Shown here: in pieces, positions 51,889 through 57,367 of the stretch | How the letters are laid out: every line of letters starts with the position of its first letter | Numbering within the stretch: the stretch's first letter is position 1 | From: Catellatospora sp. TT07R-123 | GTDB taxonomy: Bacteria; Actinomycetota; Actinomycetes; Mycobacteriales; Micromonosporaceae | Length of the DNA: 64,000 bases | Direction: 5' to 3' | Assembly (NCBI RefSeq): GCF_018327705.1 | Contig: NZ_BNEM01000002.1 | Span: forward strand, 3,720,001 to 3,784,000 | Position numbers and translations under genes: made by a program | Notes under the pieces: generated by a model | Databases searched by the model: none | What the model was told of the DNA's origin: nothing | What the model saw: the letters and a program-made list of their open reading frames with translations, nothing else

Positions 51889-53142
51889 ATGTCGGGGGTC
51901 AGTTCGTTGGGTCGCCTGGTGCCGAAGCTGCGCAGCCTGGCCCGGCAGGCGTTCCGTGCCGTGAAGTACCTCTGCTACCGGCTCTTCCTCCTGCTGCCGG
52001 TCGACCCGTACCTGGCCGTCTACACGGCGTACTGGGGCCGCGGCTACCGGTGCAACCCGGCCGCGATCTACGAGAAGGCCCGGGACCTCGCGCCGCGCAT
52101 CCGGGGCGTCTGGGTCGTCACGAAGGAGGGCGCCACGGGCATGCCCGACGGCGTCTCGTACGTCGTGGAGGAGACGCTCCAGTACTTCTGGATCATGGCC
52201 CGGGGCGCCTATTTCATCGGCAACGTGAACTTCGCCGACTACGTGGTGAAGCGGCGCGGCAGCGTGCACGTGCAGACCCACCACGGCACCCCGCTCAAGC
52301 TCATGGGCATCGACAGCTTCGCCCACGCGGGGCGCCCCGTGGGTCGCGACCACGCGGAGCTGCTCCAGCGGGTCGGCCGGTGGGACTTCAGCATCGCCGC
52401 CAACCCGCATTCCACCGAGGCGTGGGGCACCGCCTACCCGGGCGCCTTCGAGTCGCTGGAGTACGGCTACCCGCGCAACGACATCCTGGTCAACGCCGGG
52501 CCGGAGCACGGCGCGCGCGTGCGGGCCCTGCTCGGCATCGAGCCCGCCCAGCAGGTCGTCCTCTACACGCCGACCCACCGGGGCGGCACCGCGAACCGGT
52601 TCGCGGGCCACCTCGACGTCGCCGCGCTGGCCGAGGCGCTCGGCCCCGGCACGACGATCCTGCTGCGCACCCACTACTTCTACGAGCCGCCCGCGCAGGC
52701 GGCGGGCACCGGGTCGGCCCAGGTCGTCGACGTCACCGCGTACCCGGTCGTCGAGGACCTGTACCTGGCGGCGGACGTCCTGATCACCGACTACTCGTCG
52801 ACGATGTTCGACTACGCGATCCTGGACCGGCCGATCGTCGTCTTCGCGTCCGACTGGGAGCAGTACCGCACCAAGCGCGGCGTCTACTTCGACGTCTTCG
52901 AGGACTCCCCCGGTGTCGTCGTGACCACGCAGGAGGAGCTGGTCGAGCGCTTCCGGACGGGCGCCGTCGACGACGCCGCGGCCCGCCGGGCCCGCACCGC
53001 CTTCCGCGACCGCTTCTGCGCCCTGGAGGACGGCCGCGCCAGCGAGCGCACCGTACGCCGGGTGCTGCTCGGCGAGCAGACCGCGCCCGCCCCGCAGCCC
53101 GTCCCGGCCCCTGCCGTCAGCCCGCTCGCCGCGCTGCGCTGA
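51889..53142 (+). CDS. CDP-glycerol glycerophosphotransferase family protein
   Basis: 417 residues. TagF/TarB-like transferase: YFIGNVNFADYVVKRRGSVHVQ, the catalytic THHGTPLKLMG, FSIAANPHSTEAWG, GYPRNDIL, VLYTPTHRGGTANRF, ILLRTHYFY and the phosphate-binding VLITDYSSTMFDYAIL. These enzymes add glycerol- or ribitol-phosphate units to teichoic-acid-like polymers at the inner membrane. A basic amphipathic N-terminus (VPKLRSLARQAFRAVKYLCY) would bind the membrane. No other teichoic acid gene is nearby. AGGGG precedes ATG 51889. Confidence 0.9.
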   Translation: MSGVSSLGRLVPKLRSLARQAFRAVKYLCYRLFLLLPVDPYLAVYTAYWGRGYRCNPAAIYEKARDLAPRIRGVWVVTKEGATGMPDGVSYVVEETLQYFWIMARGAYFIGNVNFADYVVKRRGSVHVQTHHGTPLKLMGIDSFAHAGRPVGRDHAELLQRVGRWDFSIAANPHSTEAWGTAYPGAFESLEYGYPRNDILVNAGPEHGARVRALLGIEPAQQVVLYTPTHRGGTANRFAGHLDVAALAEALGPGTTILLRTHYFYEPPAQAAGTGSAQVVDVTAYPVVEDLYLAADVLITDYSSTMFDYAILDRPIVVFASDWEQYRTKRGVYFDVFEDSPGVVVTTQEELVERFRTGAVDDAAARRARTAFRDRFCALEDGRASERTVRRVLLGEQTAPAPQPVPAPAVSPLAALR

Positions 53143-54332: not shown

Positions 54333-54446
54333 CTGCACACCACCGCGGCGTGGCGCGGGCGCGGTCGACAAAAAGTTGGCGCGGGGGTGTAATGGCGGGC
54401 GCTGTGGCGGGACCTACTGGGACCACCGCTCTTCCAGGAGGCTGTC

Positions 54447-55817
54447 ATGCGGTCTGACACATCGCTGGCTCGGGGCGCGCTCGCCGGTGACCGGGACGCG
54501 TTCGACCGGCTCTACCGGCAGTATCGGCCGGGGCTGCTCGGGTTCGTGATCCGGCAGGTCGGCGACGTGCACACGGCCGAGGACGTCGTGCAGGAGACGT
54601 TCCTGGTGGCCTGGCGGGACCTGGCGAAGCTGCGCGACCCGGCGGCGCTGAAGACGTGGCTGTTCTCGATCGCGTACCGGCGGGCGATGTCGGCGGCGGG
54701 CCGGGTGGCTCCGGGGCCGTTGCCGGAGGAGCTGCTCACCGACGACGACCGGGCGCGGCGGCCCGAGCTCGCGGCCGAGCAGCGGGAGGCGTACGAGCTG
54801 GTCTGGAACGCCGCGCACGCGCTGGAACCCCGGCAGCGGGCGGTGCTGGAGCTGACGCTGCGCTGGGACCTGTCCAGCCGCGAGGTCGGCGAGGTGCTGG
54901 GCGTCGGCTCGGCCCACGCGGCGGTGCTGGTGCACCGCTCCCGCAAGGCGCTGGGCAGCGCCGTGCGCACCATGCTCGTGGCGCGCCAGCACGGGCGCTG
55001 CGCGGGGCTGGACGCGATCGCCCCGGGCCACCGGCGGCTGAACGTGCGCGAGCGCGGCCGGGTCGACCGGCACATCGACCAGTGCGAGCACTGCCGTCGG
55101 CTGCGTACCAGGGTCAGCGCGTACGCGGTGCTGGGGTTGCTCTTCACCGCGGGCGTGGTCCGGCCCGGCGGCGGCGCCGGGCGCCGGTGGGCGCTGCGGC
55201 TGGCGGGCGCGGCCACGGCCGTGTCGGTGCTGGCCGTCGGGGTGTACGTGCTGACCCCGCCCCGCGGCGGCGAGGCGGACGGCGCGACGGCGCTGTCGCC
55301 GGGATCGGCGGCCGCGGGCTCAGCCGACCCGGCCGCGACCCTCTCGGCGCCCCCGTCGGCGACCCCGCAGGTCTCGGCCCCGCCCTCGGCCGGCCCGTCG
55401 GCGTCGCCGTCGGTGAAGCCGACGCCCCGGGCGCCGCAGACGCTGGAGGAGCAGATCCTGGCGCTGGTCAACGCCGAGCGGAAGAAGGCCGGCTGCGGCG
55501 CGGTGCACGCCGACAGCCGCCTGGCGAAGGCCGCCCGGCTGCACAGCGAGGACATGGCGAAACGCGCCTACTTCTCGCACGACACCCCGGAGGGCGTGAG
55601 CCCGTGGGACCGCGCCAAGGCGCAGGGGTACACGACGCCGTCGGCGGAGAACATCGCCGCGGGCAACGCCACCGCCAAGGCGACGATGCAGCAGTGGATG
55701 AACTCCAAGGGCCACCGCGAGAACATCCTGAACTGCTCGTCCAAGGCGATGGGCGTGGGCCGGGCGACCGGCGGGCCGTACCGCTACTACTGGACCCAGA
55801 TGTTCGGCTACCGCTGA
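54447..55817 (+). CDS. ECF sigma factor fused to zinc finger, membrane helix and CAP/SCP domain
   Basis: 456 residues in one frame. Sigma region 2 is at 15-85 (DAFDRLYRQYRPGLLGFVIR, AEDVVQETFLVAWRDLAKL) and region 4 at 118-172 (ALEPRQRAVLELTLRWDLSS, REVGEVLGVGSAHAAVLVHR). Then an anti-sigma type zinc motif HX3CX2C (His209, Cys213, Cys216), a membrane helix (about 247-270), a Ser/Pro/Ala linker (280-330), and an extracytoplasmic CAP domain (333-456) with His366, HD 378-379, Glu401 and His423. It is thus a membrane-tethered sigma factor, related in layout to ECF groups with C-terminal zinc-finger/TM extensions. AGGAGG is five bases before ATG 54447. The adjacent GH76 gene is a possible target. 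Confidence 0.9.
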   Translation: MRSDTSLARGALAGDRDAFDRLYRQYRPGLLGFVIRQVGDVHTAEDVVQETFLVAWRDLAKLRDPAALKTWLFSIAYRRAMSAAGRVAPGPLPEELLTDDDRARRPELAAEQREAYELVWNAAHALEPRQRAVLELTLRWDLSSREVGEVLGVGSAHAAVLVHRSRKALGSAVRTMLVARQHGRCAGLDAIAPGHRRLNVRERGRVDRHIDQCEHCRRLRTRVSAYAVLGLLFTAGVVRPGGGAGRRWALRLAGAATAVSVLAVGVYVLTPPRGGEADGATALSPGSAAAGSADPAATLSAPPSATPQVSAPPSAGPSASPSVKPTPRAPQTLEEQILALVNAERKKAGCGAVHADSRLAKAARLHSEDMAKRAYFSHDTPEGVSPWDRAKAQGYTTPSAENIAAGNATAKATMQQWMNSKGHRENILNCSSKAMGVGRATGGPYRYYWTQMFGYR

Positions 55818-55933: not shown

Positions 55934-57367
55934 ATGCGAACACTTCGTGCTGCCCTCGCGGCAGCGTTGACCGCCACGCTGGCGGTCCTCACCGTCCCCG
56001 GCCCGGCCTGGGCTGCGACCATCTGCAACCGGTACTGCGACGCCCGCGACCCCGCGCTGTCACCCGGCGACCGGCAGCCGGTGACGGCGGGCGTCTGGGG
56101 CCGGTCCATCGTGCTGCACTTCGACGACGCCGACGCCATGGGCTGGGCCAGCATCGGCGGCGGCAACCCGGGCGACCACGTCTGGCTGGACCGCTCCATG
56201 GACGGCGGCCGCACCTGGGCCGCCGGCAGCAAGCTCGGCGACACCGCGATCCCCTCGGGCCAGACCGGCTGGCGGACGCTGATGTACAACGTCGACGACT
56301 GGGCCAGCCTCGGCGTGGGCGCGCTGCGCGCCTGCGGCAAGGCCGGGGACCGGCCCGAGGTGGCGTGCACGGCCTGGGCCCGCACCACCTGGAACGCGGG
56401 CAACCGGGCCACGGCCGCCGCGACCGCGCTGATGCAGTTCTACAACCTCGGCACCGGCCTGTTCGACACCACGGGCTGGTGGAACAGCGCCAACGCGCTG
56501 ACGGCGGTCATCGACGGCGTCCGGGTGACCGGCATGCCCAGCTACCGCTACGCCATCGCGAACACGTACGACAAGAACCTCGGCAAGTTCCGGGGGAACT
56601 TCACCAACGACTACCTCGACGACACCGGGTGGTGGGGTCTGGCCTGGGTGGACGCCTACGACGCGACCGGCGACAGCCGCTACCTCAACACCGCCCGCGC
56701 CGACGCCGACTACATGAACTCCTACTGGGACGGCGCCTGCGGCGGCGGAGTGTGGTGGAGCGTGGCGCGCACGTACAAGGCGGCCATCGCCAACAGTCTG
56801 TTCCTCCAGCTCAACGCGGCCCTGCACAACCGCATCCCGGGCGACACCGCATACCTGCAACGGGCCCGCAACACGTGGACCTGGATCCAGAACACCGGGC
56901 TGGTCAACTCCGCGGGGCTGGTCAACGACGGGATCAACCTGTCGACCTGCCGCAACAACGGGTCGACGGCGTGGTCGTACAACCAGGGGGCCCTGATCGC
57001 GGGCCTGACCGAGCTGAACCGGGCCACCGGGGACGCCTCGCTGCTGACCGCCGCGCGCCGCACGGCCGACGCGGCGACCACGTCGTCCGCGCTCAACGTC
57101 AACGGCATCCTGCGCGAGCCGTGTGAACCCAACTGCGGCGCCGACGGACCGACGTTCAAGGGGGTGCTCGCCCGGGGCCTGGTCAAGCTCGACCTCGCCC
57201 TGTCCGGTCGCCCATACCTGGCCTACCTGCGCCGCAACGCCGACGCGGCGTACGCCGCCGACCGCAACCCGCTCGACGCGTACGGCCTGCGCTGGGCCGG
57301 GCCGCTGGACGGCACCGACGCCGCCCGCCAGCAATCCGCCACCGACCTCATGAACGCCGCCTGGTAG
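55934..57367 (+). CDS. secreted glycoside hydrolase family 76 protein (alpha-1,6-mannanase type)
   Basis: 477 residues. Sec signal peptide ([20 protein letters not shown]... PAWAA, cleavage near 28). Residues 30-150 form an N-terminal domain with an Asp-box-like SMDGGRTW (88-95). The GH76 (alpha/alpha)6 barrel follows from about 152, with the catalytic Asp pair in [14 protein letters not shown] (Asp229-Asp230) and repeated WW and Asn-rich loops ([21 protein letters not shown]). GH76 enzymes cleave alpha-1,6-mannans of fungi or of actinobacterial lipomannan. AGGAGA precedes ATG 55934. Own promoter with LacI-like operator; lies directly after the membrane-tethered sigma gene. Confidence 0.9.

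What the first reader, a model, noticed from the sequence alone, without database searches (positions are those of the whole stretch)
54447..55817. One-polypeptide transmembrane signalling: ECF sigma - zinc finger - TM helix - CAP domain
A complete sigma region 2 and region 4, an HX3CX2C zinc motif (His209, Cys213, Cys216), a membrane helix and an extracytoplasmic CAP/SCP domain are encoded in a single open frame of 456 residues. ECF groups with zinc-finger/TM C-terminal extensions are described from actinobacteria (I recall ECF52/ECF53-like), usually with sugar-binding outer domains; a CAP sensor domain is unusual. The layout implies that sigma stays at the membrane until the outer CAP domain meets a signal and the protein is cut or changes shape.
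Basis: partly seen in the sequence, partly recalled or inferred. Interest (0 to 1): 0.8.

Follow-up and report, generated by a model that had tools for sequence, protein, structure and literature searches.

The report
Membrane-held sigma factor with CAP sensor
A soil bacterium makes one protein that joins a gene-switching sigma factor, a zinc-binding segment, a membrane anchor and an outer CAP domain, probably so that events at the cell surface switch genes directly; it is a new version of a known kind of bacterial sensor.

Summary
Window 54447-55817 (+) is one open frame of 456 aa: sigma regions 2 and 4, a zinc motif, a membrane helix, a Ser/Pro/Ala linker and a CAP domain. All 11 genomes of the genus (Catellatospora) that searched and one more of the family carry it, so it is no frameshift artefact. 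The layout is that of ECF52/ECF53 fusions in print; my paper searches found none with CAP. CAP sits on at least two sigma lineages (one clade rejected), one of them recurrent in Streptomycetaceae. There, 13 of 19 fusion genes have TGTTRTC-N16-GTCTCC upstream (10 of 15 without the loci that gave me the motif), and 4 of 5 adjacent stand-alone CAP genes have it too, though those four are among the motif's sources. So these factors probably switch on a secreted CAP protein while carrying a CAP domain as sensor. In the window's own lineage no CAP neighbour was found (0 of 12). Membrane retention and release by cleavage are inferred.

The parts
54447..55817 (+). sigma-zinc motif-TM-CAP fusion gene, 456 aa
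   Evidence: full-length orthologs in 12 of 61 genomes (own genome counted), aligned
54447..54980 (+). sigma domain, residues 1-178 (region 2 at 22-82, region 4 at 118-169)
   Evidence: AF2 pLDDT over 90 in most blocks
54999..55094 (+). zinc motif C185-x23-H209-x3-C213-x2-C216 (anti-sigma ZAS-like)
55200..55256 (+). membrane helix, residues 252-270
   Evidence: hydropathy 1.95
55263..55439 (+). Ser/Pro/Ala-rich linker, residues 273-331, poorly conserved
55458..55805 (+). CAP domain (PF00188), residues 338-453, with H366, H378, E401, H423 and Cys350/Cys430
54388..54416 (+). conserved element TGTAATG-N16-GACCTA, candidate self-regulated ECF promoter
   Evidence: TGTAATG-N16-GACYTA exact in 11 of 12 orthologs, 2 mismatches in L026; only exact copy in the window
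54365..54393 (+). overlapping vegetative-like promoter TCGACA-N17-TGTAAT
   Evidence: pattern recognised by eye
54436..54441 (+). ribosome binding site AGGAGG

Best explanation
The protein is a one-component transmembrane ECF switch. It stays dormant at the membrane: the zinc motif after region 4 acts as a built-in anti-sigma brake, one helix crosses the membrane and the CAP domain sits outside on a flexible linker. When the CAP domain meets its ligand or is pulled or cut (most likely a cell-wall event), the outer part is removed, a site-2 protease cuts in the membrane, and the sigma part goes to RNA polymerase, transcribing its own gene and envelope genes. In relatives of the second lineage the predicted targets include an adjacent gene for a stand-alone CAP protein. 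Shown by sequence: the domains, their conservation, the upstream elements, the neighbour genes. Inferred: topology, inhibition, ligand, cleavage, target genes.
For: Domains and conservation. ECF52 factor SCO4117 has the same layout apart from its outer domain; in a strain making a version without zinc finger, TM region and outer domain its own gene was activated, and its authors suggest excision by a protease (PMC5826349, abstract, sections 15 and 21 read). IutY, a sigma/anti-sigma fusion, is released by Prc and RseP (PMC8999054, passages). Conserved element in the window lineage. In lineage 2, TGTTRTC-N16-GTCTCC lies upstream of 13 of 19 fusion genes (at most 2 mismatches; about 1.2% of 3916 random windows do as well; 0-3 of 19 at other spacers from 12 to 21; reversed motif 0 at spacer 16) and of 4 of 5 adjacent CAP genes. 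I drew the motif from L220, L221, L223 and L228; without them the fusion count is 10 of 15, and the only independent CAP-gene case left is L172, which lacks it. Peptidase_M50 is present in the own genome, but this family rings in all 14 control genomes too.
Against: Nothing experimental on this protein. zf-HC2 scores under its cut-off. The AF2 test of an inhibited state was uninformative: sigma alone gives the same shape (TMt 0.79 against 0.80 to SigW of the SigW-RsiW structure). A second, weaker hydrophobic stretch at 223-241 could put the CAP domain inside if it also crossed the membrane. In the window lineage 0 of 12 neighbourhoods hold a second CAP gene, and the own stand-alone CAP locus has no window-type element (best 4-5 mismatches). 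The window element can also be read as a vegetative promoter. The adjacent CAP genes of G035 and of both g41 genomes lack the lineage-2 motif (4 mismatches each). In SCO4117 the truncated strain still developed late, though less so than the deletion (PMC5826349, section 21), so freeing the sigma part there did not simply mean full activity. Two of 21 lineage-2 fusion genes (L225, L229) were not scored by the script.
Confidence: 0.6

Rival explanations
1. Zinc or redox switch: the zinc motif itself senses (oxidation releases zinc and frees the sigma domains), and the membrane helix and CAP domain only tether the protein to the wall.
For: All four candidate zinc ligands invariant in 12 of 12 orthologs; the zinc anti-sigma proteins RshA and RseA of Mycobacterium tuberculosis are described as working this way (PMC8999054, passages).
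Against: CAP positions H366, H378, E401, H423 are invariant in 12 of 12 orthologs, and CAP dN/dS is below that of the linker in the two closest pairs (0.20 against 0.40, 0.14 against 0.79), more than a bare tether needs. Related proteins with the same zinc motif carry AbfB or Glyco_hydro_cc outer domains, which suggests that the outer part sets the input.
Confidence: 0.2
2. The CAP domain does surface work (binding or cutting wall material) and the sigma part reports on export or folding of that domain, not on a ligand.
For: H378, E401 and H423 kept in 32-33 of 35 fused CAP domains, as expected for a working domain.
Against: In the two g41 fusions these residues are lost while the neighbouring stand-alone CAP keeps them.
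Confidence: 0.12
3. Two genes fused by a sequencing or assembly error.
For: None found.
Against: Full-length frames without stops in 12 genomes, in the g41 genomes and in lineage 2.
Confidence: 0.01

Closest known systems
ECF52 sigma factors (SCO4117 of Streptomyces coelicolor)
   Same: Sigma domain, zinc finger, one membrane region, proline-rich linker and outer domain in one chain; Actinobacteria (PMC5826349)
   Different: Outer domain is CAP, not a carbohydrate-binding module; sigma group not assigned here; upstream element differs from the putative SCO4117 motif CSGYN-17-SRHA
ECF53 sigma factors
   Same: Fused zinc/TM extension; some carry predicted glycosyl hydrolase or carbohydrate-binding domains (PMC8999054 and PMC10766802, passages)
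   Different: No reference sequence on hand; CAP domain; the window lineage stands apart from the large fusion clade of the family
SigI-RsgI of Clostridium thermocellum
   Same: An outer domain senses substrate and the sigma factor is freed by stepwise proteolysis (PMC12203970, abstract and introduction)
   Different: Two proteins, another sigma group, a self-cleaving periplasmic domain; targets are cellulosome genes
DalA of Rhodobacter sphaeroides
   Same: The NCBIfam DalA model matches residues 301-454; DalA binds peptidoglycan (PMC10470522, abstract)
   Different: Outer-membrane lipoprotein without sigma domain; 64 bits against a cut-off of 200

Membership tests
ECF sigma factor | regions 2 and 4, ECF model over cut-off | tested here: met
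   TIGR02937 71 bits, cut-off 42.9; Pfam r2 met, r4_2 24.4 against 25.7
ECF52 | zinc finger, TM and proline-rich linker after the sigma domain | tested here: met
   (by ligand pattern; zf-HC2 itself is under its cut-off)
ECF52 | outer carbohydrate-binding domain | tested here: not met
   CAP is the only Pfam family over its cut-off in the outer part
ECF52 | sigma domain in the ECF52 phylogenetic group | not testable with these tools
   no ECF group models or SCO4117 sequence on hand; no ortholog recognised in the two genomes searched (proteins read)
ECF53 | sigma domain in the ECF53 phylogenetic group | not testable with these tools
   no reference on hand
Zinc-binding anti-sigma (ZAS) domain | C/H-x(about 23-25)-H-x3-C-x2-C (spacing recalled) | tested here: met
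Zinc-binding anti-sigma (ZAS) domain | occludes sigma domains 2 and 4 | tested here: inconclusive
   AF2 with and without the zinc part gives the same sigma shape
CAP superfamily | PF00188 over cut-off | tested here: met
   93.4 bits, cut-off 21.1
YkwD (TIGR02909) | score over the family cut-off | tested here: not met
   119.2 bits, cut-off 171
Release by regulated intramembrane proteolysis | cleavage in the membrane by a site-2 protease | not testable with these tools
   M50 peptidases exist in the genome, as in all 14 controls

The most novel reading that the evidence does not exclude
A sensor built from a copy of the product: on separate occasions a membrane sigma factor acquired a CAP domain like that of a CAP protein it controls, so that the fused, sometimes degenerate CAP domain competes or pairs with the secreted CAP protein over the same wall ligand and closes a feedback loop over CAP supply at the cell surface.
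Probability: 0.3. Interest if true: 0.72.

Novelty: new variant of a known kind. Interest (0 to 1): 0.5.

Why it matters
What bacterial CAP proteins bind or do is, as far as I know, poorly understood. A CAP domain wired to a sigma factor, with a predicted promoter read-out, turns that question into a reporter assay. The promoter shared by fusion and neighbouring CAP gene gives a testable regulon for sigma factors whose inputs are largely unknown, and the swapped outer domains (CAP, AbfB, beta-helix, glycosyl hydrolase core) make the scaffold a natural one-chain sensor kit.

Tried and rejected
Operon partners: the glycosyl hydrolase 76 gene downstream was found beside the fusion only in G005 and G009, the upstream gene only in G009, so I rejected them as partners. 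Regulon by motif in the own genome: GTAATGGCN{15,19}CTACT occurs once, at the gene itself; the window search with up to 3 mismatches gives no more than chance (3 found, 3.2 expected). AF2 evidence for an inhibited state: dropped after the sigma-only control. Naming ECF52 or ECF53: no SCO4117-like relative recognised. Defence link: no PADLOC family. Phages: 28 records match, none over 80% of the protein; the 8 listed match the CAP or the sigma part only. Single origin of all CAP fusions: rejected by AU tests (p 2.8e-6; 1.5e-45); the group was defined by the CAP domain. The CAP tree is weak: window and g41 fused CAP as one clade is not rejected (p 0.45), window with G017/G035 is borderline (p 0.07), and long branches are flagged.

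Full report
OBSERVATION. The frame 54447-55817 (+) is open over 456 aa, with AGGAGG five bases before the ATG. Pfam and NCBIfam give sigma region 2, a region 4 match just under the Pfam cut-off, an ECF model over its cut-off, a weak zinc finger and a strong CAP domain. The best hydrophobic stretch is 252-270 (1.95), with a weaker one at 223-241 (1.38). His209, Cys213 and Cys216 are as stated; Cys185 completes C-x23-H-x3-C-x2-C and all four are invariant in 12 of 12 orthologs. In the first set of 41 related sigma rows, 40 have C-x23 (9) or C-x24 (31) before H-x3-C-x2-C; L084 has none and was left out of the later trees (correcting the looser pattern).

CONSERVATION. Among the 61 genomes (own, genus, family, order), full-length matches are in 12: the 11 of the genus and G026 of the family. 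The genus is Catellatospora: L045 (C. sichuanensis) and L046 (C. vulcania) carry the gene, and their contig lengths equal those of G004 and G007; the family is Micromonosporaceae. Identity to the window protein is 59-89%. Sigma and CAP parts are conserved, linker and helix region less so. Surroundings are not: the glycosyl hydrolase 76 gene downstream was found only in G005 and G009, the upstream gene only in G009 (several of those loci had 1.5 kb of flank). The stretch from 54364 to the ATG is conserved across the 12: TGTAATG-N16-GACYTA is exact in 11 of 12, with two mismatches in L026. The same stretch also fits a vegetative promoter, TCGACA-N17-TGTAAT, so which polymerase form reads it is open.

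DISTRIBUTION. With the window profile, 3 of 200 genomes of the order have full-length fusions: the own genome, and G165 and G224 of another family (genus code g41). A different sigma lineage carries CAP in G017 and G035, 2 of 200 genomes of the family by full-length match to their profile (114 of 200 matched at E 1e-45, the listed ones mostly without the CAP end; the match list was cut). In the class search 13 of 197 genomes, own included, matched at E 1e-55; translation and HMM scans show nine CAP fusions in eight genomes of one unnamed genus, G387, G407 (two), G424, G454, G465, G475, G503 and G530, a lower bound. In plasmids 111 records match one of these proteins; I fetched the ten best distinct ones (H1-H10), and all ten carry a sigma-CAP fusion (L229 weakly for CAP, E 1.5e-14). 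They are Streptomyces, Kitasatospora, Embleya and Streptantibioticus, all Streptomycetaceae; the five with gene tables call it a sigma-70 family factor. The own genome also has two sigma fusions with AbfB and two with beta-helix outer domains; relatives carry Glyco_hydro_cc, AbfB or BACON_2.

TREES. On 65 sigma domains (7 of the 12 window-lineage rows were used; L084 left out) the CAP fusions fall in two places: 9 rows of window and g41 kind, weakly joined (92/55 here; 82/56 with 55 rows; 93/93 with 41 rows), and 21 rows of lineage 2 (98/96, starred). One clade for all is rejected (AU p 1.5e-45; 2.8e-6 with 41 rows). So CAP was joined to this scaffold at least twice, or lost many times. In the CAP tree the G017/G035 fused CAP groups with the stand-alone CAP beside the G035 fusion (100/91), with a long-branch warning.

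NEIGHBOURS. In 35 fusion neighbourhoods (flanks mostly 3 kb or more; L239 has about 1 kb downstream) a stand-alone CAP gene lies beside the fusion in 7: g41 2 of 2, G017/G035 1 of 2, plasmid records 4 of 10, lineage-2 genomes 0 of 9, window lineage 0 of 12. Orientation: head to head in L162, L163, L223, L228; tandem in L220, L221; tail to tail in L172. By my rough estimate (a handful of CAP genes per 8-10 Mb genome) well under one would be expected by chance; no call computed this. Fused CAP domains keep H378 in 33, E401 in 33 and H423 in 32 of 35; the 40 stand-alone CAP domains collected keep all three in 40 of 40. Most of that stand-alone set was gathered with a pattern that demands the surroundings of Cys350 and His366, so those two positions do not count as tests. 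The two g41 fusions, both with a CAP neighbour, have lost H378, E401 and H423; L230 lacks H423.

PROMOTERS. Reading intergenic stretches of L162, L220, L221, L223 and L228 showed TGTTRTC-N16-GTCTCC before fusion or CAP genes of the last four. Scored over 330 bp upstream, 13 of 19 lineage-2 fusions have it with at most 2 mismatches, all 13 between 92 and 108 bp before a common anchor; 2 further loci (L225, L229) were not picked up by the script. Leaving out the four source loci, 10 of 15. Random windows of the same loci reach this in about 1.2% of 3916. The count peaks at spacer 16 (13 of 19; 0-3 at the other spacers from 12 to 21), and a reversed motif gives 0 there and 0-1 elsewhere. Of five adjacent lineage-2 CAP genes, four have it with 0-1 mismatch; all four are source loci, so this count is not independent. 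The CAP gene beside the G035 fusion lacks it, as do the two g41 CAP genes and the two g41 fusions. Of the 18 loci L183-L200, fusions of the family including Glyco_hydro_cc ones, 11 have it; the own-genome fusions scanned (L004, L007, L010) and the other fusions scanned do not (L003 was not scanned). Thus the motif follows part of the sigma tree, as expected of a self-regulated promoter. The window element has the same layout with other letters. The own stand-alone CAP locus has no window-type element (best 4-5 mismatches).

STRUCTURE. AF2 of the full chain: sigma part confident, zinc part 53-72, helix about 36-42, CAP 39-72 by blocks of ten. The sigma part best matches SigW from the SigW-RsiW complex (TMt 0.80), but so does the sigma part alone (0.79), so this is no evidence for a brake.

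MECHANISM. Shown by sequence: domains, their conservation, upstream elements and neighbours. From papers: in SCO4117 the truncated sigma part goes with activation of its own gene, its truncated strain still develops late though less so than the deletion, and proteolytic release is proposed (PMC5826349; abstract, sections 15 and 21 read); IutY is cut by Prc and RseP (PMC8999054, passages); RsgI outer domains sense substrates (PMC12203970, abstract and introduction); a lipoprotein whose NCBIfam model matches our CAP part binds peptidoglycan (PMC10470522, abstract and passages; the passages searched do not call it a CAP protein). Inferred: zinc brake, outer CAP, wall signal, cleavage, envelope targets. 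That H378, E401 and H423 line the CAP cavity is recalled, not tested.

NOVELTY. The one-chain sigma-zinc-TM-outer domain kind is in print, with sugar-binding and hydrolase domains (PMC8999054 and PMC10766802, passages). A CAP outer domain did not come up in the search listings (searches returned nothing; 10 of 35 and 12 of 51 papers were listed). The library lacks many subscription papers, and the ECF reclassification paper asked for is not held. I call it a new variant of a known kind.

Noticed in passing
L174 / own genome C1:1266915-1269802: Two sigma-zinc-TM fusions with AbfB outer domains lie head to head. AbfB corresponds to CBM42 (recalled), the sensor of one RsgI of Clostridium thermocellum.
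   Followed up: partly
L003, L007 (own genome): Two further sigma fusions with right-handed beta-helix (Pel9A-like) outer domains.
   Followed up: partly
L183-L200: Sigma fusions of the same family; of those scanned by Pfam, L184, L188 and L192 have Glyco_hydro_cc outer domains. TGTTRTC-N16-GTCTCC (at most 2 mismatches) lies upstream in 11 of these 18 loci.
   Followed up: partly
window 51889-53142 and 55934-57367: CDP-glycerol glycerophosphotransferase-like gene and a glycosyl hydrolase 76 gene near the fusion; the latter is next to the fusion only in two near species.
   Followed up: partly
L164, L165: Each holds two sigma-zinc-TM proteins in tandem with proline-rich tails, in family f8 genomes; their tails were not scanned for domains.
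   Followed up: no
phage records KP696448, KP696447: Bacillus phages Stills and Stahl carry a protein annotated as secreted LysM/SCP-PR1 domain protein that matches the CAP part.
   Followed up: no
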